Positions 7,401-63,332 of a DNA stretch of 64,000 nucleotides are shown here, one piece after another. Each line of letters begins with the position of its first letter. Position 1 is the first letter of the stretch. The DNA comes from Cinnamomum chago. Lineage: Eukaryota > Streptophyta > Magnoliopsida > Laurales > Lauraceae. Made by a program: the position numbers and the translations under genes. The notes beneath the pieces are model-generated. The model saw only the letters and a list, made by a program, of their open reading frames with translations. It searched no databases and was not told where the DNA came from. Location: assembly GCA_038049695.1 (NCBI GenBank), contig CP142455.1, positions 22,295,501-22,359,500 on the forward strand, in the 5' to 3' direction.

Positions 7401-10400
7401 TCAGTTGTAAATAGTCAGCATTTTATCCTTCCCGTTTAAGATTACTATTTTGAGAAACTTCATGACAACAGCACTGCATATGTATATGTATGCAGCTCTC
7501 AGATATCGTGAAATTGGGCCTTTAGGCAGTTGGGTTTTATCTTATTTGAAAAAAAGTTCAAGAGAACACCTTATTTGAATAATAGTTGAACAGACATGTT
7601 CTGTTCAAGTTACAGTAGCAGCATGTTTCCAGAAGTCCTTATTATGTTGCAGTATTTATTTTATTTTTCCTGTTCCAACTTTATATGTGGAAAATGGTCT
7701 CTACTGGCAGCTTCTTCATCCCGGCTAAATTTACTATTTTGAGCAATTTCACTATGAAAACACTGCATTTTTATGTCTGTCTCAGTTCTAGTGAAGTGGG
7801 GATTTTACACACCTGAGTACCTGACTAATATCTTAGTTGAGCTGGTTCGAGAGAATCTCGTGCGGTTAGGGGCCATTTTACAATTAGGGTTTAGAAATAC
7901 ATTAGGATTGGAAGTCTTTTTGTATTGAAATTACGTTTGGATACCTAATATAAGAAGAGTAAGGAGGTGTGTGATTAAGAACACATGACCTTCGACCAAC
8001 TGCTGTTCATAAATCTCTCTCTCTCTCTTATATTCCTTCTCAAATCTCTAATATCTCTTCATCTACCTTCCCTTTATTTCTTAAACTTAAAATTTTACTG
8101 CATGATTCCGCTGATTCATTTCTCTATCCTTGCAGATGAAGACTCAAATGGTGCAATAGATCCAGAAGAATTGAAGCATTGCTTTCATAAACTTGAAATC
8201 TCTTTCTCAGAGGAGGAGATTATCGATCTTTTTCAGGCATGTGATATCAATGAGGATATGGGTATGAAATATAATGAGTTCATAGTGCTCCTTTGCCTTG
8301 TATATCTTCTGAAAGAGGACCCGACTGCCCTTCAAGCTGTATCCTAAATGACATTTCAGTTGTGCATTTTTATTTGTTTTCTTTTAATATTTTTTTATTA
8401 CTTTGAGAATTAGGGCTGAGTGGAGAACTAGAACTCCAGAGATGACACTATCTAGATTATAAAAGGCTTTTGTTTCTTTATTACCTTGAGAATTTGGTTT
8501 CAGTGGAAAAGTAGAAGTCCAAAGAGGATCCTATAAAGATTGGCTTTGGTGATTGATTCTGATAAAGATGTCACATCATGGTCACAATGAAGAATTCCTT
8601 TAGGATATGGATCCCTGCATTAGACTTTGACCTTCTGTTGGTTTATTAATAGCTTAACTTGGTCAATTGGTCTCCCACGTCAACCTATGTAACTTTTAGA
8701 TATATTAGAAAATCATTCATATTCAAGGATTTGATTCTCCATTGCCAAAAAAACTAAATCCTGGCTTCTATATTTGATTCACATATCGAAGCATTTGGCG
8801 GTTGAACCACTCAATTCACACTTTGCACAGTTCAACTGTGGGCAAGTCATTTTGGTTGAAGTTGAATCCAACCGCAACTAGTATTGGTTCCAGTTAAACT
8901 GGGTCAGACCAGCCAGTCTGGTGAGGTTTTAAAAGAATTTGATTTCTACTGAAAACAGGATGTTTCTGCTGAATTGCATGTGACTTGTTCAAATGTATCC
9001 CCTTAAATAAGTACTGGAAGCAAGTTGATTAAAACGAGCAACTCAGTTTTGACCTGATTTAACTTCATGGCCTTAGGTCACTACAAAATCTAATCTGCTA
9101 ACGTGTATATGTTAATGCCAAAGATCAATTGCTGTAATTTAGTTCATGAAAGCATTACATGTAATTTTAATTATGTAAATAGAATCACATCAAAATGATA
9201 AAAGGTGCCATCCATTTTTTCAGGTAAACACCATTAAAAATAGAAATGTAAATATATGACAGTATTTTATGCTATAAGATGGATGGAGAGGCTTTGACAC
9301 ATGAACAGTGTTTTTTTTTTTTTTTTTTTTTTATAACTATTTGTTCATTATGTATACTAGAACATAAGTGGAAAGCTTCAGAATTTTAATTTCCATGACC
9401 AAATTGCTAGAAATCACAGTTGGGATTGCAAAATCTTGACACAACATTTGAAACATTAGTTGATGCATTTGTGTTTCTGGACAAGAACAAAGATGGATAC
9501 GTCAGTAAGAATGAGATGGTTCAGGCCATAAATGAAACTACTGCTGGTGAACGCTCTTCTGGTCGTATAGCCATGAAAAGATTCGGTGCACTCTCTCTCT
9601 CTCTCTCTCATGTTCATGGACACTCAAACACAAATTTTCCTTGAGTTATAGACAATAGAAGATGCATCTCCTCTCTCTTGCATGTCCATGGACACAAACT
9701 CAAATTTTCCTTGAGTTATAGACAATATAAGCTGCATTCCCTCTTTGATCTTGTATAAATTGCTGACATACAAATGACATGAATCCATCTTGTGCTGGAA
9801 AAGTCCTGCACATGTGTAGTTTGAGGATCCTATTCCTCTCAATTATGCCAGTGGCCAGGCGCATTGTTCTCTTTTATACAGGGCAGCTTATTTGGCTATC
9901 TTGATTGTTCATTCGATGGTCCTTACCATGGAATGTGACGTCTTAAAATTTATCAAATTTGAAGTTCCTAGTGGGAAAAGGCTTGGTTTGGTTTGGTTTG
10001 GTTTGAAGTTCCTAACTAATATTGGTTGGTCAAATAGATCCAGAAAAATATAATTGGGGGGGGGGGGGGCTACAATTCCACTATATCCTGTGTCCACTTA
10101 AATCTGCAACCAAACAGCATCATATGGTGGACTATTTAGAACTACTATCTACTTGGTTTCTCGTCTCCGTACAGATACCAAGTTGAATGGTGTAGATGTC
10201 TCACAGTCTTCAGTTTGGAAGTTTCTTGTACAAACTTGAAGCTTATAATTACTTTATTGAATCACGACATAGGCTTTCTTTTCATTTGTTAATATTCTAG
10301 TGTCTAGAATTCCTAATAATGTATCTAGATGCTCATCAAATTGTGATCAGTTTGAATATTTTGGTTGGATGAATGGTTTTATTTTGCTGTGTCCTGGGTG

Positions 10401-40545: not shown

Positions 40546-43371
40546 CTAATGTGTCAATAGAAGATGATATAGTTGAAGTGGGAACCTACCATGGATGTAT
40601 TGAAGATGGATAAACTCACCTGATTCAGATATTTCTCGGTATGGTTGAGAAGACGAAGAAGAAGATGAAGAAGCAGCCATTTGGGTTCCATCTACGGTGA
40701 CAGATTTTATGTGTTTAATCTTATCCCAATCCTCTCCCTTGTTGTATTGAAGCCTGGCATTGAATGTGTCTGGCATCCCTACAACCTCTAATTTCTTGAT
40801 GCGACGGAGATGCAGCAGTCCTTGTGGAAGCTCTTTCAATCGATTGCAAAGGCGGATGACCAAATGTTGAAGATTTGGCATCGCCCCTTTCTCCACTGTC
40901 CACTCCTCCAGCCCATCCAAAAGACTCAATTCCAAGAACATAAGGTTTCGAAACCTATCGGCAGAGCAGACCATTTTCTTGCCCAAGAAAGAACCGCATC
41001 TTAATTTTAAGACCACAAGATGTCTCAGCTGCTCCAGAGTTGCCATTGGGTCTTGCTCTAGTAAGGACCATTTCAAGCATAGCTTTTTTAGGTACACTGG
41101 GAATATATCTGGGACAGGCATCTTCTGTAGCGGTTTCTCCAAATACAGAGACCTGATACGCCCACTAAGCAACATACGCTCTGGAATTATATCCCTAAAG
41201 CCAAAACCCAACCTGAAGATTTCAATATCGGTATATTCTAGATGGATGATATCCTCATAATCGAGTAGATCCCCATATATTCCCAATTTCCTAAGACGGA
41301 GGAGATTCCCCTTCCATTGACCCGCTCGTATCACTGAAAGGACACGAAGTCTCCTTAAAGAAGAGAGATCCAGCGAATCATTGTCTGTACTACCATCATC
41401 CATATCCATATACAGAAACTCTAGCCGTTCCAATTTCTGGATGGCAGTGGGTATTGGTTTGACTCGAGTGTCTCTTATATCTAGGCTCTGTAGGGTTCTG
41501 AGGTTGCCAATTGAATTAGGGAGACTATACAGACCAGTGCCTCTTAACCCTAAACACCCTAGGAGAACAAGTTCCCCTATCTCTTCGGAAAGTTGAGTGA
41601 TAAAATACATATCCTCTAGATCCAATACCCTAAGTAATTTAAACCTTGACACGGGAAAAGTCACTTCACCTCCAACTACAGTGAGCTGCGGAAAACACAC
41701 CAGAAAGCGGAGATTTGGAAGAGAGACCTTTTGATCATGAAAAATAAGGTTGTAGATGCCACTAGAATGGAGAGCGAGTCCACGGGCATTGCTGCTGCTG
41801 CTGCGGCTGTCAGGAGGCCCTTCGTTGTCGATTTTGTGAGAAAGGTTATATTGCATGGCTTTCATTGCAGCAAAGTCCCACACGGGAGACTCCAAACGAA
41901 TTCTTTTCACCCCAAAACCACCAATTTCTTCCCGGTGATATCCTGGTGGCAAGTCAGAATATTCTACTGGAAAGTAAGAATATTCTACTTGAATCATGCC
42001 CAGGTGTGACAGGTCCTCGAAATATGAGTCTACTCTACGTGTGAACTGTTCCAATGCAAGAAAGCGCTTCATTCCATCTACTTCATCAGGATAGAACCAT
42101 CCTACTGCAAACCACAGCTCGAGTAGTCTCCGGATTGGGATTTCAAATCCTTTTGGGAAAAGGCTGCAATACAAGAAGAACAATTTGAAGGGAGCCTTCA
42201 GGAGATTAAAACTGGAAGCTATTTTCGACAGGGTTCTTTCGGGACCATCTACTTGGTAGTAATGAGGATGATCAAGCATAATATTGGACAATGCACTACT
42301 TTTCCTATTTTCCTTGGATAGCAGGTCACCTAAATTCACAATTTCTGATGGTAAGTGCATTTGCTTTCTCACAATCTCCTCAAGCATGCCTGAGCTCAAA
42401 CTAATACCTGCTGCTGTTTCTGCTGTTGTGGCATCGAAATCCTGAGTGTTTAAAAAGAGCTTCCATTTTTCCTCCGAGCTCAACATTCCTAATTCATGGA
42501 CTTCAATTTCTTGTCCAAACAGATCTGCATCCCTTTTGTCATTGCAAGTAACCACTACTCTGCTGCCATTCCTCTCATCCGGGAAAGCTTCTCTTATGTC
42601 AGACACGAGGTTTTTTATGATGAAGTCCTCTCTGGGATTGATGTCCCCGGGGTATCTGAGATTGATGTCCAGGACAATTAAATACCTCTTGCCTTTCAAA
42701 GCACCAGCTATAAGCTCTACCTCTAGCCCTGCTCTTGAAACCTGTTCCACCTTTGTTAAAATCTCCCCCAAAAAAACACTGTCCCGAAATTTATACTTCT
42801 GGCCACAGAACCAAAAACGGGAAGGGAATTGCTCCTTGACAGCATCGCTATCGTAGACTTCCTTTACAAGAGTAGTTTTTCCTGCACCGCATGGCCCAAC
42901 TATGAACATATACAGGGGATGTGGTTCATTTCCCTCCACCAACAGTTTCACTAATGCATCAACATCTTTATCAAACCCGAAAACTTGTTTATTTGGCATG
43001 CTTTCACAAATTCGACCCATCTTCTCCTTCGCCTGCCTTACTTCTGCAACCATCTTATAACGAGCCACTTTGCCCTTCACAGCGAAGAAGGCGCTGCCCA
43101 TGCATCCCATTCGCTGCTGTCGTCTCTCAAGATTGAAGTCGAAGTTGTCAACAATATCCTCAATGTTTTGAGCTGCATGTATTAAATCTCTCACCCATTT
43201 CCTTAATTCCTTACAGTTCATCTCTAGCCCGGGATCTTCTTCCAGTAGCTCATGTACCCGCCTTAGTTCGCTTTCGATCCATGCGATACCACTGTAGGCG
43301 GTGGAAAGATTTGGAACTTGGAGAAATTGAGCCAGTTTCTCTGCAATCACGAAGAGAATAAATGCAGCCAT
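40546..43371 (-). CDS. CC-NB-ARC-LRR (NLR) immune receptor, motif-degenerate
   Basis: An intact 941-residue ORF without introns starts at ATG 43371; an in-frame stop lies just upstream. Residues 1-125 form an Rx-type coiled-coil domain with IEDIVD (70-75) in place of EDVID. The NB-ARC has a good P-loop, GPCGAGKTT (159-167), then YLIVLDIN (230-237) at kinase 2, where the usual second Asp is Ile, and GSRVVVTC (269-276) as RNBS-B. The GLPL motif is not recognisable; the region reads QMHLPSEIVNLGDLLS. RNBS-D (FKLFFLYCSLFPKG, about 395-408) is clear, but the MHD motif is replaced by LESPVWDF (493-500). Leucine-rich repeats run from about 550 to 900. Such proteins detect pathogen effectors in the cytosol; the lost motifs suggest altered nucleotide cycling or early decay. 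A CAG/GTGAGT donor at 40620 could replace the last 24 residues. No paired NLR is in the window. Confidence 0.88.
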   Translation of the reverse strand: MAAFILFVIAEKLAQFLQVPNLSTAYSGIAWIESELRRVHELLEEDPGLEMNCKELRKWVRDLIHAAQNIEDIVDNFDFNLERRQQRMGCMGSAFFAVKGKVARYKMVAEVRQAKEKMGRICESMPNKQVFGFDKDVDALVKLLVEGNEPHPLYMFIVGPCGAGKTTLVKEVYDSDAVKEQFPSRFWFCGQKYKFRDSVFLGEILTKVEQVSRAGLEVELIAGALKGKRYLIVLDINLRYPGDINPREDFIIKNLVSDIREAFPDERNGSRVVVTCNDKRDADLFGQEIEVHELGMLSSEEKWKLFLNTQDFDATTAETAAGISLSSGMLEEIVRKQMHLPSEIVNLGDLLSKENRKSSALSNIMLDHPHYYQVDGPERTLSKIASSFNLLKAPFKLFFLYCSLFPKGFEIPIRRLLELWFAVGWFYPDEVDGMKRFLALEQFTRRVDSYFEDLSHLGMIQVEYSYFPVEYSDLPPGYHREEIGGFGVKRIRLESPVWDFAAMKAMQYNLSHKIDNEGPPDSRSSSSNARGLALHSSGIYNLIFHDQKVSLPNLRFLVCFPQLTVVGGEVTFPVSRFKLLRVLDLEDMYFITQLSEEIGELVLLGCLGLRGTGLYSLPNSIGNLRTLQSLDIRDTRVKPIPTAIQKLERLEFLYMDMDDGSTDNDSLDLSSLRRLRVLSVIRAGQWKGNLLRLRKLGIYGDLLDYEDIIHLEYTDIEIFRLGFGFRDIIPERMLLSGRIRSLYLEKPLQKMPVPDIFPVYLKKLCLKWSLLEQDPMATLEQLRHLVVLKLRCGSFLGKKMVCSADRFRNLMFLELSLLDGLEEWTVEKGAMPNLQHLVIRLCNRLKELPQGLLHLRRIKKLEVVGMPDTFNARLQYNKGEDWDKIKHIKSVTVDGTQMAASSSSSSSSQPYREISESGEFIHLQYIHGRFPLQLYHLLLTH

Positions 43372-44527
43372 GTGTCTCAATTAAAGGTGATTGACTTCAG
43401 CTCTGACACCTAACTTGCCACCCTCCCGTTTCATTTCTTCTGTTTTCCTGTGTTGCTCACACTCAAAAGGGCTCTTCTATTCCATGCTTCGTACATTAAA
43501 AGAATAAGCCACTTCTTCTAAGAATAATGCCTGCCATGGACAAAGCTTGGCGAGAATGCTAACACCAAACCGGGCTGGCTCTGTTCTTTCAAGGTTAGAA
43601 TCATCCTTTCGATCTTAATGATTTTAAGTCACATAAGAACATGAACAGTGGCTATGTCATTGCAAGTGGATCGTCACTGTCTCTCGGACGATTAATAAGA
43701 AACGAAAAGATTGATTGAATATGCTCTCTCTCTTCTTTTTCATTGAATTTGCTCGATTAGTGGCACCTTCTTTAGCAGTTTTTCCCTGGCAATAAATGAG
43801 AGAAGGATATAAGATGACTGTGTAGAAGAAAATTGAATGACTACATATCCAAACAAAAGTGAATAAATAAATAAAAATTGAATGACTATGGTCCAATCTA
43901 AAAATAGCTAAAGGAGGTATACATGTATGCCATATTCATGCTTCCTTATGGATTGCATACTCTTATCTGCACAGATAATGGTTAATAGACTTAAGTTGTG
44001 GGTTAGCTCCAGTAAAGATAGATGATTGTTTGCGTGAAAATTAGGTTGGATTGAACTGAACCTCTCAAAGATTTCAATCAAAAGAAGAAATCTTAGAATA
44101 GATCAGCTCCTACAAATTTGAAGGCAATGCTAGAAAGCACTCGAATTGCTGAAAAGGAAAACCAGTTTTTGACCTTTTAATGGTAGTAGCAACAATGATA
44201 ATGAGTTCATTCCGAATCCTATCGGCTACATAGATTTTCAGTCCACTACATTGCTTGTGCTAGCTGCCTAGCTTTTAGGGCTTGTTTGTTTCCTATAATT
44301 GAATACCTAGGTGCCATTGCAGATTTTGGCTCCAACAGGACACCCAGCCACAACGATCTTTGAATTTTGAGTTTAAACTTCAAATTCGTCTGTTTAATTA
44401 GTTTTAGTTATGGATAGAAACTCTAAGATAAAGGAGAGAGATGTTAGACTTAGATTCGGAATATGTTGCTAGTTCCACAACGACTTTATAAGTCATTTGG
44501 ATTCAACGACTGTTATTAGGCTTGGGC
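43372..44527. other. Upstream region of the NLR gene
   Basis: No further coding sequence. It should contain the NLR promoter, but no TATA box could be chosen with confidence. A GGGCTTGTTTGTTTCC segment near 44278 resembles a MITE end without a partner. Confidence 0.35.
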
Positions 44528-50695: not shown

Positions 50696-51964
50696 TTCTT
50701 TACTCGGGAATAGTTACAAGTGAGTGAGATTTTAGGGATTTGAATCTACAATCATTCTTTTCATCTTCTTTTATTTCCAACAATGTCCTTTTCTTCTTAT
50801 TCTATTCCCAAACAATCTTAATGACAAACTAGCAACAAACGCCAATGCTAAGCCCGAGCCAAAATGAAAATATATTAAAATTTAAGAATTCTTTTAAAAT
50901 ATTACTAAGATAAAATAAAACTAAACTAAAGAAATTTATTAGCTTTGAATATTAAAATCTTTTAACATGTCATGAAAATAAATATAAAATAAAGTAAACT
51001 TACATAACATGACGACCCCTTGAATTTAAAGGCATTGACCATTGCACAAGTATGAATCTGTGTCTATATGGGACAACTCTCTTAAGTTAAAGCTAAGGAT
51101 AAGTTAAAGCTCAAGTGTATGGTGGGGCCCACATGGGGTGGGGATGGGGGGATTTCAAGGACTCCATAGGGCCCTTCTCTTTGTAAAAAAAATAGTCCCA
51201 ACCATGGTTACTACCATCTCCATCTGGCCCTAGAAGTTTAATGGTCAACAGTCCATTCGGATCTGTACACAGTCGATCCAACGGTCCAGTAAACTCTGAT
51301 TTGACTAAAAGCTAGTGGACATGTGCGATTTAGGGGGGTCGTGTGTTTAGTTCATTTGGATGGACCAAGGGCGGGCCCCACAAGCGTAAGCTTATAGAAT
51401 TAAATAGATAGGTATGGTGCCCGGGCTAAAAAAATATGATGAAATATGTGATTCTTTTCTGAGGTATTATTGAAAAAGAATAGATTTTACAGAAATAAAT
51501 AAATAATTTATATTTATTAATATATAATATATATATATATATATATTTAATATTTTATTTCTTTAATGTGGCACTTTATTCAATTAGTTTACCACCAAAA
51601 CCAAACCCAGCCCATTACATATTGTGCAAGTGTGTGTGACCATGGCGTTCAATGGAAGGTCATGGAGCAGGTTTGAAATTAATGACATGAGACCCACTAT
51701 AAAGTGGTGCAGGTTTAGGATGTCAAATGAGGTGGGTATAAAATTAGTATGACCCAATCTTGACCCACCTCATTGCCATCCCTATATAAGACCATCCAAG
51801 CCATTCACGAAGCTTACCAAACCCTCAAAGAAACATAGAAGGATGACCATCCTCTTAATATCATTATAAATTCAGTATGAAGGAGGGCATTTGTTTTCCT
51901 AAATTGAGTTCTTTAATCATATGAACTCCAACTCATTCCTAAATTCAGTCTGAAGGAGTGCACT
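50696..51964. other. Intergenic repeats, no gene
   Basis: It contains a GCTAAGCCCGAGCC segment near 50850, a GTGGGGCCCAC site at 51122-51132 opposite a CGGGCCCCAC at about 51375, and an (AT)n run at about 51515-51546. Parts may be Helitron- or MITE-derived. Confidence 0.35.
51515..51546 (+). repeat. (AT)n microsatellite
   Basis: An almost pure alternating AT run. Confidence 0.8.
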
Positions 51965-53880: not shown

Positions 53881-56810
53881 CTTTTATTATAAAACGTAGC
53901 GATGCCTCATAGAAGAAATTAACATGACTAATAATATGCATTCGCAAATGCATATTATTTTCTTTTTGGGACTATTTATTTCCCCATTGATCATCCAACT
54001 CCCTTGGTCCTCCTTGAATCAAGGTTAATTTCTATGGATCAATGGCATGTGGTGGGCCACTTCAAGTATACTTCAAGCCTTTGTGAAGTAAAATCTCTCA
54101 TGTGGGGCTTGTGGATTTCTTATAAGATTTTCATCGGTAAAAATCTCAGAACTTCAAGCATATCATTGGGTTATGAGTTTTTACGTGATTAATGGCACAT
54201 GATGGACACTTGTGAAGTAGCAATCTCACATGTGGCGCCTGTAGTGCAAGCTGTGTAGCCAATTAGAAACCAAAACGTGTGGAAACTAACAACAATTGCA
54301 TACCAATAATTATGTGGGGCCCACCTTGTGGATCTCAATCACATGGATAAGAGGATTGGTTAGACAGATTTTAGGATGTATTAAGATTAGAGAGTGATTT
54401 GAGGATTAAGATAAGAAGATAAAATAGAAAAGTTAGGAAAAGAGAGATTTTAGGGAAAATTAGAAGGATTTTAGAAATGTAGGTCTATGAAACTATAATC
54501 TTAATTTAAATGGAGAGATTTAGGGAGGAGATTTGGGAGGTGTAGTGGCCCACATTAAGCCCAAAGCTCTGTAAGTATGTTTCTAAAAGGAGAAATTATA
54601 GGTGCTGACGTGACGCCCTCCACAACGCCCGTGCTTAGCCCGGGGCAAAAGGTAAGATATTATATTTTGAATTTATGAGATATCAAAATAAATAATAAAC
54701 ATATAAGAATATATTCATGCATATTTATATAAAAACAGTCAACACATCTTCAATCACAAATACAAGTGGTCAACATCAACAATAAACTATTAAAAGGATA
54801 AAGCTAAAAAACCCATTTAACAACAACATAAAAATAATAATAACAACAATAATTACTATTTGTTAATATATATAATATTAGTAATAAGAAATGCATTCAA
54901 GTTTTAGTTACCCATTGATAATTTCAAAGCCCCATAAAAAAAAAAAAAAAGCCACCCCATTTGGGCTTGTTTGTGCAATAAGAGAACTCTAGTTTATGTG
55001 GATTTTTATTTCTTCATGAGAATGAAATTTTGTATTTTCGCAGAAAATCAAAGTTCTTTCTATTAAGGAAAAATGATTCATTTTTTTCTTATATGCAAGG
55101 AAAATACGTCACACCAAAAAATATAATATTGTTAACTAAGAAAATCATTAAAATCTGCAATCCTCTCGTTGCACAAATGCACCGTTTTTTTATTTTCACA
55201 TCGGCCAATTTTCATTTCAATGCCTCGGTATAAATTTCTTCTCTACCCCTTTAAAGTAGCACTAGTACCATTTTAGAACTGATCAAACCGTTTTGTAGCT
55301 CTAGATTTTTTAAAAAATGTATAAATATCTTAACTTTAAAAGCCATAAATTATGAGACTATAAGATCACATGCTAGTGTTATTTGATCGCAGTAATAATT
55401 AGCCCACTTTGGATCAATGTATATATCTCTTAATTATAAGTCCATGTGGGCCTACGAAAGTGTAATTTATCGTGGGCCAAACTTATGGTCATATTTTTTG
55501 ACTTATTAGTTCATATAGACATAAATTACATAGTCCATGTCATAAAAAACATGAGGTGGTCTACCAGTAAGTAAAAATTTATTAGTGTGAATTGTTGAAA
55601 GATAAAAAGATGACAATCTTGAGAAGATGGAAGATAGATGGTATTGTGAAAAATTTATTAGTGTGAATTGTTGAAAGGTGGGCCCTAAATATTAAAATTA
55701 AAAGATGACAATCTTGAGAAGATGGAAAATAGATGGTGCTGAGAGAGAGAATAATTGTAGTACAATAGAGAGATTTTAGGAGATATTGATTGATAGACTT
55801 TAGGAGATAGAAGATTTGAATAGAGATTTTAGGGGATATTGATTGAGAGACTTTAGGAGATAGAGGATATGGATAAAGAGATTTTTTTGAGAAAAAATTC
55901 TGGCATGTGATGACATGGCACCTTAAATCACTCTATGTTTTTTCTCCATATTTATTTGAAAGGAAAATTATTGGGTTGGTGAGGTGGCACCCCTCACAGC
56001 ACACCTTCCCCTTTGCTTTAATATATATAAAGTGAAACTCTTTAGTGGGTGCTTTCCATCCAAGATCTATATAATTCAAATGCATATCCACCTATTTATG
56101 GGACATGGCAAAATCTAACTCCAATAAGTCATGGTCCCACAGTAAGATTAAGCATGTAAATAATATGAATAAAGTATTAGAAAACACATATATTTTAGAT
56201 ATCAGGCTCCACTTTCTCGGAATGAAAACAAATATATAAACTATTTCAATCCAAAATGATGAAGTCATAAGAAAAAAATTTTAACAGCTAAAAGGAACTT
56301 CAAAAGAAAGTATGAAATGTTTTTTCACCTTAAAGCTACCTTTGTATTTTTTTAATTGAAGATTTACAAAAATCCAATATTTTGATGACCTGGAGATCAA
56401 GCTGGTGGGGTCAACTTAACCTCATATTCAAACCTGATTTTTACTTGGCTTGACATTTGCAGTTTTTTTTAATTTTTATTTAGGTCAATTTAATGTACCC
56501 ACACCCAATATAACAATCAAACTTGGTTCTTGCTCATGAGAAATTCTGATTTTTATTCAACTTGAATCTAGTTTTTGCTCAAATCACATAAACCAAATAA
56601 TATTGTCAAAACATGAATAAAAATATGATTTTATCGATTTTTCTTGTTTATCTACACAATTTTGTAATCTAATTAACACTAATTGAGTGGTGCAATTTCC
56701 CTTACGAGCATATAGTTGTCATATGTAATTTATACTTGACCTAACTTAAATAAAAGAATAATCAATTCATTAATAAAAATAAGTGGTATTAAAAAATTGA
56801 TACATATACC
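53881..56810. other. AT-rich intergenic region with small repeats
   Basis: No coding sequence recognised. It includes a GTGGGGCCCAC site at 54314-54324, a CCCGTGCTTAGCCCGGGGC segment near 54629 of Helitron-terminus type, and two kinds of tandem repeat at 55578-55880. Confidence 0.4.
55578..55880 (+). repeat. Two adjacent tandem-repeat blocks
   Basis: Block 1 repeats ATTAGTGTGAATTGTTGAAA and GATGACAATCTTGAGAAGAT twice (about 55578-55740). Block 2 repeats GAGATTTTAGG(A/G)GATATTGATTGA and GACTTTAGGAGATAGA at about 55770-55875. Confidence 0.7.
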
Positions 56811-56814
56811 TTTC

Positions 56815-59219
56815 AATTCATCACTTTCACAGATGACTACTCAAGATATGGATACATATACCTTATGCACCGCAAGTCTGAGGCTTTTGAAAAGTTCAAA
56901 GAGTTTCGAGCGGAAGCGGAAAAACAATTAGGTAAAAGTATCAAGACTCTTCGATCAGATCGAGGAGGGGAATATCTCTCTGGTGATTTTATGGGATACT
57001 TATCAGAAAATGGGATTCTATCCCAGTTGTCTGCTCCCGGTATGCCTCAACAGAATGGAGTAGCGGAAAGAAGGAACCAGACTCTTTTATATATGATTAG
57101 ATCTATGTTGAGTTTCTCAGGATTACTTATATCCTTTTGGGGATATGCCTTGGATACTGCGATGTACATACTAAACCTCGTGCTATCTAAGTCTGTACCT
57201 AAGACTCCCCAGGAGTTATGGTCTGGGCGAAAGCCTAGTCTACAACATTTACACATTTGGGGTTGTTCGGCACACGTACTGAAGGTAAAGACGGATAAAT
57301 TGGAAACGAAGTCGGAAGTATGCACGTTTGTAGGATATCCTATAGGAACTAAAGGTTGGCTATTCTATAATCCCAGAGAGCAGAAAGTGCTGGTAAACAC
57401 CAATGCGGTTTTTCTGGAGGAATATTATATGATGGACCGGAAATCTTTAGAAGAGGTGATCTTGGAAGAGATTCAAGAACAATCAATTCCAAATCCAAGT
57501 ATGACCGAACTTGAGGAAGAACCGCCCCTACCAGACCCATAGTTACACCAGTGCCTCGTCGTAGTGGGAGAATAATCAGGCCCCCTAATAGGTTCTCGTT
57601 CTTGGGAGAGTCTTACGAGGCAATCCAGGAAGAATTGGAACAGGATCCCTGTAACTATGATGAAGCAATTAATGACATAGATTCGGGACATTGGCAAGAT
57701 GCTATGAAAGTTGAAATGAAGTCTATGTACTCTAATCAGGTCTGAACACTTGTGGACTTGCCTGCCAATATCAAACCTATTGGGTGCGAGTGGGTCTACA
57801 AGAGAAAGAGAGGAACAGATGGAAAAGTTGAGACCTTTAAGGCCAGGCTTGTTGCGAAAGGGTATACTCAGAAAGAGGGTATCGATTATGAGGGAACCTT
57901 CTCGCTGGTAGCCATGCTCAAATCCATCCGGATACTCTTATCTATAGCAGCTCATCTCAATTACGAGATTTGGCAAATGGATGTCAAGACGGAGTTCCTC
58001 AACAACCATCTTGAGGAAGACATCTATATGATGCAGCCAGACGGTTTTATAGCAAGTAACCAAAAGCAAAGAGTTTGCAAGCTGCAGAAGTCCATTTATG
58101 GATTGAAGCAGGCATCCCGAAGCTAGAACATCCGTTTTGACTGGGCAATCAAATCATTTGGTTTTAGTTAAAATCCGGATGAGACATGTGTGTACATGAA
58201 TAATGAAGGTGACATGGTAGTTTTTTTATTTTATACGTCGACGACATCCTTCGCCTTAGGAAAGATATAGGAATGTTGTCAACAGTAAAAGTTTGGTTAG
58301 CAAAGACTTTTGATATGAAGGACTTGGGAGAAGCTAGTTACATCCTGGGATCAAACTCCATCGAGACCGAAAAAATATGATGATTGGCTTATCTCAAGCT
58401 GCTTACATAGATAAGGTACTGGTACAGTTTGCTATGCAGGACTCCAAGAAGGGTATCACACCTTTTAGGCATGGAGTGCACCTTTCCAAGGATCAGGGTC
58501 CCAAGACCCCGAAGGAAAAGGAGCAAATGAGAGCAATTCCATACGCTTCGGCTGTTGGTAGCCTCATGTATGCTATGCTATGTACTAGACTGGATATCTG
58601 TCATGCAGTGGGCTTAGTCAGCAGATATCAGTCTAACCCAGGTCCTGACCATTGGACTACTATAAAATGTATCCTCAAGTACTTGAGAAGAACTAGAGAT
58701 TACATGTTGATTTACGACAGTGATGAGCTGATTCCAGTCGGATACACAGATTCTGACTTCATGTCAGATAAGGATTCCAGGAAATCCACCTCTGGTTATG
58801 TGTTTATGTTTGGCGGAGGAGCTATCAGCTGGAGGAGTATTAAACAGGAATGTACCGCTGATTCTACTTCTGAGGTTGAATATGTAGCGGCTTGTGAAGC
58901 AGCTAAGGAAGTAGTATGACTCAAAAGATTCATTTTGGAACTTGGAGTGGTACCTTTGGCACGACAGCCGCTCACAGTTTATTGTGACAGCAGTAGGGCA
59001 GTCGCTCAGTCCAAGGAACCCAAGAGCCATAAAAGTCAAAAGCACGTACAGAGGAAGTATCACTTGGTCAGAGAGATTGTGCAGAGAGGTGATATTGCTA
59101 TCACTAAGATAGCCTCCGCAGACAATCTGACAGATCCTTTTACTAAGCTTTTGACCACCAAAGTCTTTAAGCAGCATGTAGACGGGATGGGCATGAGATG
59201 CAATCCTGATTGGCATTGA
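56815..59219 (+). pseudogene. 5'-truncated Ty1/copia polyprotein: integrase, RT, RNase H
   Basis: The reading frame opens abruptly in the integrase core at 56815 (FITFTDDYSRYG) and continues with SDRGGEY and GVAERRNQT. RT follows, with GCEWVYKRKRGTDGK near 57785 and MDVKTEFLNNHLEEDIYM near 57980. The YVDD catalytic motif is at 58234-58245. RNase H has GYTDSDFMSDKDSRKSTSGY, YCDSS and ADNLTDPFTK, and the frame ends at TGA 59217-59219. Frameshifts occur near 57540, 58220 and 58340-58380, and there are stops at 57743, about 58124, about 58168 and 58917, so no functional polyprotein can be made. Gag, protease and the 5' LTR are absent. Block spelling is nearest to Tork-like copia elements, which is inferred. 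Confidence 0.9.
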
Positions 59220-60487: not shown

Positions 60488-61240
60488 GAGGAACAAACCC
60501 CTCTTGGACGTCCATAATAGTGAGAGCCATTCCAGCCCCTTTGTGCAAGTGTTGCACAAGTTCTCTTCCTCTCTAAGTTATCTTCTCTTTCTCCTTTAGT
60601 TCCTTAAAGATACTAGTTGGGGTTTCTCTTGGAGATCCACCATCTTCTTGAGAAAAGAGATCTAATACGGGCAATAGCGTGGAAGATTAAAAGGTGTTGG
60701 AGATTCTGAATTGGATAGTGAAGGTGTTCATCATCAAAGGAAAGAACTCAAATTCTCCATTAGAGCACTACAAAGCTCCAAAGGTATATCTACATCCTTG
60801 TATGTTGTAGATTTCGTGGTTGCATGTTTATGTGTTGTTTTCTATCTTCTAGATATGATATATTGCTGTACATGGTTTATGAGTTTGAGAGATTGCATCC
60901 TGGATTGGGTTTGTTGCCTTCTAGGTAGTTGATCCCTGCATCAAGTGGGTCAAAAGTTTTTGAAACCTATCTGAATGACCCACCTATATTCCAACAGTAA
61001 ATGGATACCTTGCTATCAACCTAGTCAATCAAATTCTAGGGAAATCATAGTCATATCCATCATATATCCTTCTATTCACCCTTGACCTCTTAAATAAATC
61101 TTTATATCATCCCATGCTTCATGAGTTTCTAGAATTCAATTCCATGCTAACAATGGGCCCTAACAATGGTTAGAAGTCAGAACTCTATCAAACAAAAAGA
61201 TATGAAGAACAAGGAGAGGAGGATTAACAACTTACCTTAG

Positions 61241-61320
61241 TCAATTCAGGCACATAATAGCACAAACTTGGTCAATTCAGGCACAGACTAGCACAGACTT
61301 GGTCAATTCAGGCACAGATG
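61241..61320 (+). repeat. 31-bp tandem repeat, about 2.6 copies
   Basis: Units start TCAATTCAGGCACA at 61241, 61272 and 61303. The first two differ at only a few positions. Confidence 0.85.
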
Positions 61321-62079: not shown

Positions 62080-63267
62080 GGTAGTGTTTGGTTCGCTGTA
62101 ATGAAAGTTGGAATGGAATGGTCATTCCGACGGAATGATCATTATAGCGTTTGGTTCGCCAAAAAATGGCGGAATGACCATTACCTCCGGAGTCCCATTC
62201 CTTTATGTGAGGGAATCATCATTCCATTGGGGATGGGAAGGAATGACCATTCCATTCCCTTTTAACTTTTTGTTGAGACCAAAATACCCTTCCTTGATAT
62301 CTATCTCTATTATAAAAGAGACAATGTTGCATGGTTTTTTCACCACACCACTGTGGGGCCCACCCAAAATATTATAATAAAATATAATCATATATTATTA
62401 TTATATAATATATAATAATATAATATTTATACCCTTATGATCTATCTATCTCATACAAACTTTTTCACTATACCATTGTGGGGCCCACTCCCAAAAATTA
62501 TAATATAATATAATAATATATTATTTTGAGAAATTACAAAATTTTTCACTATACCTTTGTGGGGCCCACCCCAAAATATTATACTGCAAACTTTTTCACT
62601 GCACTATTGTGGGGCATACCCCCAAATATCTACTATCTACTTCTACTATATACTATCCACTACCATTATAAAAGAGGGAAAGTTGCAAACTTTTTTCACT
62701 ACATCATTGTGGGGCCCACCCCCATATATTATAATATAATATCATAATATATTATTATAAGAAATTGCAAACTTTTTCACTACACCTTTGTGGGGCCCAA
62801 CCCCAAATATTATAATGCAAACTTTTTCACTACACCATTGTGGGGCCCACCCCAAAATAGTATAATATAATATAATAATATATTATTATGAGAAATTGCA
62901 AACTTTTTCACTACATCATTGTGGGGCCCACCCCCAAATATTATAATATAATATAATAATATATTATTTTGAGAAATTGCAAACTTTTTCACAACACCAT
63001 TGTGGGGCCCACTCCCAATTTTTTCACAAACAATGTAATGTGACAGGAGAATCTAACAAGGGTATTTTGGTCAATCTTTTGTAAATTTGATTCCATTCTG
63101 GTCATCATTCCAACATACCAAACGCAGGAATAGGAATCAGAATTCTATTACTGGGTTGATTCCTCAGGGTACCAAACATTGGAATGGAAATGACTATTCC
63201 TGCCTTATTCCATTCCGGTCTCTATTCAATTCCTGCCTACAACCATTCTAGCGAACCAAATACTACC
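62080..63267. mobile_element. PIF/Harbinger-type non-autonomous element, 1188 bp
   Basis: The left end GGTAGTGTTTGGTTCGC and the right end GCGAACCAAATACTACC are inverted copies with one difference, and both sides carry TTA (62077-62079 and 63268-63270). This is the terminal form and target duplication of PIF/Harbinger and Tourist elements. Subterminal sequence is rich in GGAATG and CATTCC. No transposase is encoded. The centre (about 62330-63015) is a tandem array with GTGGGGCCCAC sites. Confidence 0.85.
62330..63015 (+). repeat. Tandem array with nine GTGGGGCCCAC-type sites
   Basis: Units contain CAAACTTTTTCACTACACC, then ATTGTGGGGCCCACC, then an AT-rich ATTATAATATAATAT stretch. Sites begin at 62353, 62478, 62559, 62609, 62709, 62790, 62840, 62921 and 63002. 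Seven are exact GTGGGGCCCAC; 62609 and 62790 are altered. Spacing is mostly 81 or 50 bases. Confidence 0.9.
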
Positions 63268-63332
63268 TTAGTTTCTACGATGTTGATACTCAAAAAAGAG
63301 ATCTAGAAATATGAAGTCCTTTCAAAAGTGGA

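What the first reader, a model, noticed from the sequence alone, without database searches (positions are those of the whole stretch)
62330..63015. Harbinger-type transposon carrying an array of TCP-consensus sites
Seven exact and two altered copies of GTGGGGCCCAC lie in a 686-base tandem array inside a TTA-flanked PIF/Harbinger-type element. GTGGGNCCCAC is the known consensus for TCP transcription factors, so the element could spread ready-made TCP site clusters. The AT-rich spacers and 81/50-base spacing would place sites on similar helical faces. Whether TCP proteins bind here is inference.
Basis: partly seen in the sequence, partly recalled or inferred. Interest (0 to 1): 0.75.

Follow-up and report, generated by a model that had tools for sequence, protein, structure and literature searches.

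The report
Plant mini-transposon carrying TCP-like repeats
A small plant jumping element of a known kind carries a variable-length string of repeats, each holding a copy of a DNA word that matches a plant gene-switch binding site; the copies are real and spread with the element, but the sequences give at most weak and mixed signs that they are kept for that purpose.

Summary
Window 62080-63267 is a 1188-bp element with 18-bp inverted ends (1 mismatch), TTA on both sides, and 7 exact plus 2 altered GTGGGGCCCAC. It belongs to a repeat family: of 41 family loci examined, 36 have both ends, and these 36 all carry 2-9 exact GTGGGNCCCAC, against 4 hits in 3600 shuffles. The array is a variable tandem repeat; elements run from 650 to 1776 bp.

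Ends and TTA/TAA duplications fit a non-autonomous PIF/Harbinger (Tourist-like) MITE, and the family does disperse TCP-consensus sites. But the sites share no helical face at 10.4-10.6 bp per turn. Tests for constraint on the motif are mixed and weak. The array also occurs in larger repeats without Harbinger ends (8 of 8 loci examined). Only 563 of the genome's 21,884 GTGGGGCCCAC have the exact array flank, a lower bound.

Best reading: a MITE that picked up a minisatellite and amplified it; TCP binding is possible but undemonstrated. The wider oddity is the genome-wide excess of GTGGGNCCCAC in several unrelated repeats.

The parts
62080..63267 (+). whole non-autonomous element (1188 bp, no long reading frame)
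   Evidence: TIR and TSD; 16 relatives aligned in one piece from base 12 or less to base 1184 or more of 1194, at 81-92%; longest stop-free stretch 90 aa
62077..62079 (.). left TTA target-site duplication
63268..63270 (.). right TTA target-site duplication
62080..62097 (+). left terminal inverted repeat GGTAGTGTTTGGTTCGCT
63250..63267 (-). right terminal inverted repeat, 1 mismatch to the left one
62277..62291 (+). left arm of internal inverted repeat GACCAAAATACCCTT, just outside the array
   Evidence: read
63058..63072 (-). right arm of the internal inverted repeat
   Evidence: read
62297..63018 (+). array module that also occurs outside this MITE family
   Evidence: eight array-only places start at query 221-304 and end at 937-942; loci L049-L054, L019, L020 lack the MITE ends
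62353..62363 (+). GTGGGGCCCAC, exact
62478..62488 (+). GTGGGGCCCAC, exact
62559..62569 (+). GTGGGGCCCAC, exact
62609..62619 (+). GTGGGGCATAC, 2 mismatches
62709..62719 (+). GTGGGGCCCAC, exact
62790..62800 (+). GTGGGGCCCAA, 1 mismatch
62840..62850 (+). GTGGGGCCCAC, exact
62921..62931 (+). GTGGGGCCCAC, exact
63002..63012 (+). GTGGGGCCCAC, exact

Best explanation
It is a non-autonomous PIF/Harbinger (Tourist-like) MITE with an internal minisatellite. Shown: the ends and target duplications, a family of many copies, an array in each complete copy examined, and a unit number that varies between copies. Inferred: one ancestral MITE acquired a piece of an already existing repeat with GTGGGGCCCAC in its unit. 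A PIF/Harbinger transposase acting in trans then copied the MITE, and the array grew and shrank by slippage or unequal exchange. The TCP consensus came along as a passenger. TCP factors may bind some copies, but the sequences give no clear sign that binding has kept the motif.
For: TIR and TTA. 25 of 36 complete copies have identical 3-nt flanks, 22 of them TTA or TAA (the script favoured end pairs with equal flanks when an end was ambiguous). 36 of 36 complete copies carry 2-9 exact GTGGGNCCCAC; 20 of the 36 come from a search whose query included the array or are the window copy, 16 from the array-free right end. 19 of the 20 right-end loci have a site 260-278 bases from the right end; L068 has none. 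Element length is 650-1776 bp; spacing 81 is the commonest at 113 of 266 intervals, then 50 at 35. The array module occurs without the MITE ends in 8 of 8 loci tested. Decay looks ordinary by two tests: the motif 11-mer is intact in 69% of 36 first units and 44% of 41 last units, percentiles 0.69 and 0.19 of all 11-mers, and the middle base has 2 of 98 single changes. DDE_Tnp_4 (PF13359) coding stretches exist in the genome, some without stops (150 scored of 1138 candidates).
Against: No autonomous partner with the same ends was identified; I could not read the surroundings of the PF13359 hits. The direction of transfer (larger repeat to MITE, or the reverse) was not shown. With CpG columns set aside, G/C columns of the motif change less than G/C columns of the flanks: 0.040 against 0.051 in first units (95% interval of the difference spans zero) and 0.066 against 0.110 in last units (interval excludes zero). 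Against the MITE ends it is 0.040 to 0.063 (interval just reaching zero) and 0.066 to 0.086 (interval spanning zero). In last units the middle base changes at 0.098, in the upper part of the motif's range. Absence of strong constraint is also weak evidence, because only a few insertions would need to matter to the host.
Confidence: 0.7

Rival explanations
1. One reading: the element is a functional disperser of TCP-bound enhancer-like clusters, and the array is kept because TCP factors bind it.
For: The word matches the TCP14 recognition motif GTGGGNCCCAC as printed in PMC10391996. 36 of 36 complete copies keep at least 2 exact sites. G/C columns of the motif change less than G/C columns of the flanks in last units. 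TCP motifs are over-represented in transposon-derived open chromatin in rice (PMC9408979, passage); MITEs amplified TCP15/23 motifs in tomato (Morata 2018, as told in PMC12595863); a rice Wx distal regulatory element that was tested by reporter contains GTGGGGCCCAC (PMC12540380, passage; it does not mention TCP).
Against: Intact 11-mer unremarkable; middle base not relaxed among single-change copies; first-unit comparison with flanks not significant; no common helical face at 10.4-10.6 bp; the word is abundant in other repeats of the genome, and only 563 sites have the exact array flank.
Confidence: 0.17
2. The array is a nested Helitron-like insertion: array repeats begin with A|TCTAT...TATTATAAAAGAG, which resembles Helitron 5' ends, and the MITE carries a truncated copy.
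For: In 6 loci (window, L019, L050, L051, L053, L054) the repeat can be read as starting after an A at TCTAT..., followed by TATTATAAAAGAG in 5 of them and by a different sequence in L053. Flanks outside differ.
Against: The start lies in a TCTA microsatellite, so the edge is not sharp. L020 reads TCTGTACATC, and L049 and L052 show no such start. No CTRR end or 3' hairpin was seen in the 3' flanks compared, by eye only. No paper in the held library has TATTATAAAAGAG. The resemblance to Helitron ends is from memory.
Confidence: 0.25
3. The repeated sites are binding sites for the element's own transposase, as subterminal motif arrays are in En/Spm-type elements (recalled).
For: Arrayed short palindromes inside a DNA transposon.
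Against: In the window copy the first and last sites lie 273 and 255 bases from the ends; site number varies from 2 to 15; the array occurs in repeats without these ends.
Confidence: 0.05

Closest known systems
Tourist-like PIF/Harbinger MITEs of plants (features recalled)
   Same: 3-bp TTA/TAA target duplication, short inverted ends, no coding capacity, many copies
   Different: carries a central variable tandem array of 81/50-bp units
Plant MITEs that amplified transcription-factor motifs (TCP15/23 in tomato, E2F in Brassicaceae; reviewed in PMC12595863, passages read; the tomato paper is not held, and the E2F paper was not looked up)
   Same: a MITE family spreads copies of a TF motif, here a TCP motif
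   Different: a cluster of 2-15 motif copies (up to two mismatches) in each complete element examined; no binding or expression data
MITEs or foldback elements with internal minisatellites (PMC4596501, PMC4079207; search listing and start of abstract only)
   Same: tandem repeat inside a non-autonomous DNA transposon
   Different: other organisms; no TF consensus noted in what I saw

Membership tests
PIF/Harbinger (Tourist-like MITE) | 3-bp TTA/TAA target-site duplication | tested here: met
   TTA on both sides of the window copy; 25 of 36 complete copies have identical 3-nt flanks, 22 TTA or TAA
PIF/Harbinger (Tourist-like MITE) | short terminal inverted repeats beginning with GG | tested here: met
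   18 bp, 1 mismatch, GGTAGTGTTTGGTTCGCT; that such starts are typical of the superfamily is recalled
PIF/Harbinger (Tourist-like MITE) | mobilised by a PIF/Harbinger DDE transposase (plus Myb-like protein) with the same ends | tested here: inconclusive
   PF13359 matches over the cut-off exist in the genome (150 scored of 1138 candidates), but their ends could not be compared with this element
PIF/Harbinger (Tourist-like MITE) | no coding capacity, multi-copy | tested here: met
   longest stop-free stretch 90 aa; 16 one-piece near-full relatives among 40 scored of 594 candidates
TCP-binding cis-regulatory cluster | sequence matches the TCP consensus GTGGGNCCCAC | tested here: met
   7 exact sites; consensus as printed in PMC10391996
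TCP-binding cis-regulatory cluster | motif constrained relative to flanks, free middle base | tested here: inconclusive
   intact 11-mer unremarkable; middle base 2 of 98 single changes; G/C columns lower than flank G/C columns in last units but not clearly in first units
TCP-binding cis-regulatory cluster | bound by TCP proteins and altering nearby expression | not testable with these tools
   needs DAP-seq, gel shift or expression data
Helitron (for the array module) | 5' TC after host A, 3' hairpin plus CTRR before host T | tested here: inconclusive
   A|TC starts readable in 6 loci but in a TCTA microsatellite; 3' end not seen

The most novel reading that the evidence does not exclude
In this genome several repeat families that look unrelated (this MITE family, the larger array repeats, a repeat with 1,491 first-look candidates, and another with 96) carry the palindromic TCP consensus. 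GTGGGNCCCAC thereby reaches 29,784 copies, where Markov models of sampled sequence predict a few hundred for each form. On the boldest reading, transposons here have repeatedly recruited TCP sites, for example to be active in dividing cells, and have remade the landscape to which the host's TCP proteins bind.
Probability: 0.2. Interest if true: 0.65.

Novelty: new member of a known kind. Interest (0 to 1): 0.38.

Why it matters
Transposons that carry ready-made binding sites are one proposed route by which regulatory networks are rewired. Here a whole cluster travels in each complete copy examined, with a variable number of sites, so copy-number effects could be tested between natural alleles. 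The genome-wide excess of the TCP consensus makes the question of chance passenger or recruited site testable with one DAP-seq experiment.

Tried and rejected
Helical phasing of the sites: not supported at 10.4-10.6 bp per turn; in phase only near 10.1, the best of a scan, which 888 of 2000 random sets of unit lengths also reach. Constraint on the motif: tested four ways with mixed results (anchored units, which include some false anchors; TIR-anchored alignments; single-change spectrum; G/C columns without CpG, the only one that leans towards constraint). A Helitron origin of the array: left open, 3' end not seen. A MITE of this family without an array: among the 20 right-end loci only L068 has no site, and its left end was not found; the left-end search was not followed by fetching. 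Rows dropped before the count of 36: L047, L055, L062, L068, L071 (ends beyond the mismatch limits; L047 and L062 do carry sites). Wider context of GTGGGGCCCAC: only 13 sites could be classed in an unselected way (the first 8 places listed, 5 from 232.8 kb of sampled and window sequence). None lies in the arrays, 6 fall in one related group, 7 are unlinked apart from one weak 26-base match between L004 and L027. The species was not identified; that it is a plant is inferred from the CC-NB-LRR gene.

Full report
What is there. Window 62080-63267 is a 1188-bp element with 18-bp terminal inverted repeats (1 mismatch) and TTA directly outside both ends. It holds seven exact GTGGGGCCCAC and two altered copies in AT-rich 81-base and 50-base units. 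The 50-base unit reads as an 81-base unit lacking about 31 bases of spacer (sequences). Just outside the array a further inverted pair, GACCAAAATACCCTT and its complement, flanks the middle. The longest stop-free stretch is 90 aa, so the element is non-autonomous.

Chance. Shuffles of the window give 0.35 matches at up to one mismatch against 23 observed on both strands. The word is close to a palindrome, so each exact site is also reported on the other strand with one mismatch.

The family. The window lies in a genome of 1.061 Gb in 14 contigs. A search with the whole element scored 40 of 594 first-look candidates and gave 73 matches; 16 besides the window copy run in one piece from query base 12 or less to 1184 or more, at 81-92% identity. 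I fetched 20 places from that list. A search with the array-free right end scored 40 of 266 candidates; 21 of these were absent from the first list, and I fetched 20 of the 21. With the window copy that makes 41 loci. Thirty-six have both ends within the mismatch limits (dropped: L047, L055, L062, L068, L071). All 36 carry 2-9 exact GTGGGNCCCAC (175 in all) and 2-15 sites at up to two mismatches; 16 of the 36 come from the array-free query. One hundred dinucleotide shuffles of each gave 4 exact hits in 3600 shuffles. Identical 3-nt flanks occur in 25 of 36, of which 22 are TTA or TAA (the script favoured equal flanks when an end was ambiguous). Among the 20 right-end loci, 19 have a site 260-278 bases from the right end and L068 has none. 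Element length runs from 650 to 1776 bp, and spacing 81 is the commonest at 113 of 266 intervals, then 50 at 35. The array is therefore a shared, variable part of the family. Median pairwise difference in the end regions is 7.6-8.9%.

The array is not private to the MITE. In one search eight scored places match only within query bases 221-942, that is window 62297-63018. I fetched six of the eight. With two loci fetched earlier because they hold clusters of the word (L019, L020), eight loci carry the array. None shows the MITE ends: BLAST gives only chance matches of 12-17 bases at E 0.85, and the best 18-base end match has 5 mismatches; the same two queries hit 38 and 40 of 40 MITE loci. At least five of the eight (L019, L020, L050, L051, L053) also carry a second type of unit with GTGGGCCCCAC and shared 3' sequence. 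In the window and five of the loci the left edge can be read as A|TCTAT..., followed by TATTATAAAAGAG in all but L053. This resembles Helitron 5' ends as I recall them, but the edge lies in a microsatellite, three loci do not fit, and no Helitron 3' end was seen.

The word in the genome. GTGGGGCCCAC occurs 10,987 plus 10,897 times and GTGGGWCCCAC at 7,900 places: 29,784 sites in all. The pattern read backwards gives 33 plus 31, but it contains CpG and is a poor control. A better control with the outer bases swapped, CTGGGGCCCAG, gives 123 plus 117. Markov models of order 1 to 4 from 232.8 kb of sampled and window sequence predict 170 to 599 for GTGGGGCCCAC on both strands; the order-4 figure is raised by the five sites in the sample itself. 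The array flank CACTACACCNTT directly before the word accounts for 245 plus 318 sites, a lower bound because flanks decay and the second unit type is not counted. Another repeat flank, CTCAAGTGTNTG, accounts for 311 plus 306. Most of the 21,884 sites are thus unassigned. Of the three other exact sites in the window, 51122 lies in a repeat with 1,491 first-look candidates, 54314 in one with 96, and 26250 in sequence found once. Of 13 sites taken without regard to family, none lies in the arrays.

Is the motif kept? The tests disagree. In TIR-anchored alignments the exact 11-mer is intact in 69% of 36 first units and 44% of 41 last units, at percentiles 0.69 and 0.19 of all 11-mers. Of 310 units anchored on the left flank, some of them false anchors, 171 have the exact word and only 2 differ from it at the middle base alone. 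Among 98 single-change copies, the middle base has 2 changes and the last base 23, 21 of them the same C to A, probably inherited; 55 of the 98 are G to A or C to T. If TCP binding kept the word, the free middle base should change most. On the other side, when only G/C columns without CpG are compared, the motif changes less than the flanks: 0.040 against 0.051 in first units (95% bootstrap interval of the difference -0.039 to 0.019) and 0.066 against 0.110 in last units (-0.068 to -0.018). Against the MITE ends the figures are 0.040 to 0.063 (interval just reaching zero) and 0.066 to 0.086 (spanning zero). In last units the middle base, at 0.098, is in the upper part of the motif's range; in first units it never changes. 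I read this as mostly ordinary decay with at most weak constraint. These tests concern the family as a whole and cannot exclude that a few insertions matter to the host.

Helical phase. At 10.4-10.6 bp per turn the sites are spread. A scan finds R 0.80 near 10.1, but 888 of 2000 random sets of unit lengths do as well in the same scan.

Literature. GTGGGNCCCAC is given as the TCP14 recognition motif in PMC10391996 (passages). MITEs that amplified TCP15/23 motifs in tomato and E2F motifs in Brassicaceae are described in the review PMC12595863 (passages); the tomato paper is not held. Rice transposon-derived open chromatin near duplicated genes is enriched for a TCP motif (PMC9408979, passage). 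A TCP-type motif is reported over-represented in Copia elements near Arabidopsis heat-stress genes (PMC8725346, passages). A tested rice Wx distal regulatory sequence contains GTGGGGCCCAC, without mention of TCP (PMC12540380, passage). A MITE with a minisatellite is known from a bacterium (PMC4596501, listing and start of abstract). I found no report of this family; the searches were made, in an open-access library only.

Verdict. The element is a new family member of a known kind, a PIF/Harbinger-type MITE, by target duplication and ends; its transposase was not linked. It does disperse clusters of the TCP consensus, but functional dispersal is not established, and by the exact-flank count this family is a small source of the word in its genome. 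The genome-wide excess in several repeats is the more unusual observation.

Noticed in passing
whole genome G000: GTGGGNCCCAC occurs 29,784 times in 1.06 Gb, far over a swapped-end control and Markov expectation, in several repeats that look unrelated.
   Followed up: partly
window 51122-51132: The exact word lies in a repeat with 1,491 first-look candidates; related L002 and L005 copies hold the word in opposite orientations.
   Followed up: partly
window 54314-54324: The exact word lies in another repeat (96 candidates); many other copies have about 150 extra bases in the middle.
   Followed up: partly
window 40546-43380: A CC-NB-LRR type resistance gene reading frame of 944 aa (Rx_N, NB-ARC, LRR).
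   Followed up: no
window 56865-58919: Remains of a retrotransposon, probably Copia-type: integrase and SH3-like domains in the first frame; the second frame (58377-58919) has no Pfam match at the threshold.
   Followed up: no
L019:2762-3284: A different short element (TAGGGGTGTAACGG ... ACACCCCTA) appears to be nested inside the array.
   Followed up: no
L049:811-896: A third type of unit, with AGCCAATCAAATGTAAGTT or a close form before the same word.
   Followed up: no
window 61236-61318: A 31-bp tandem repeat, 2.7 copies, 92% match.
   Followed up: no
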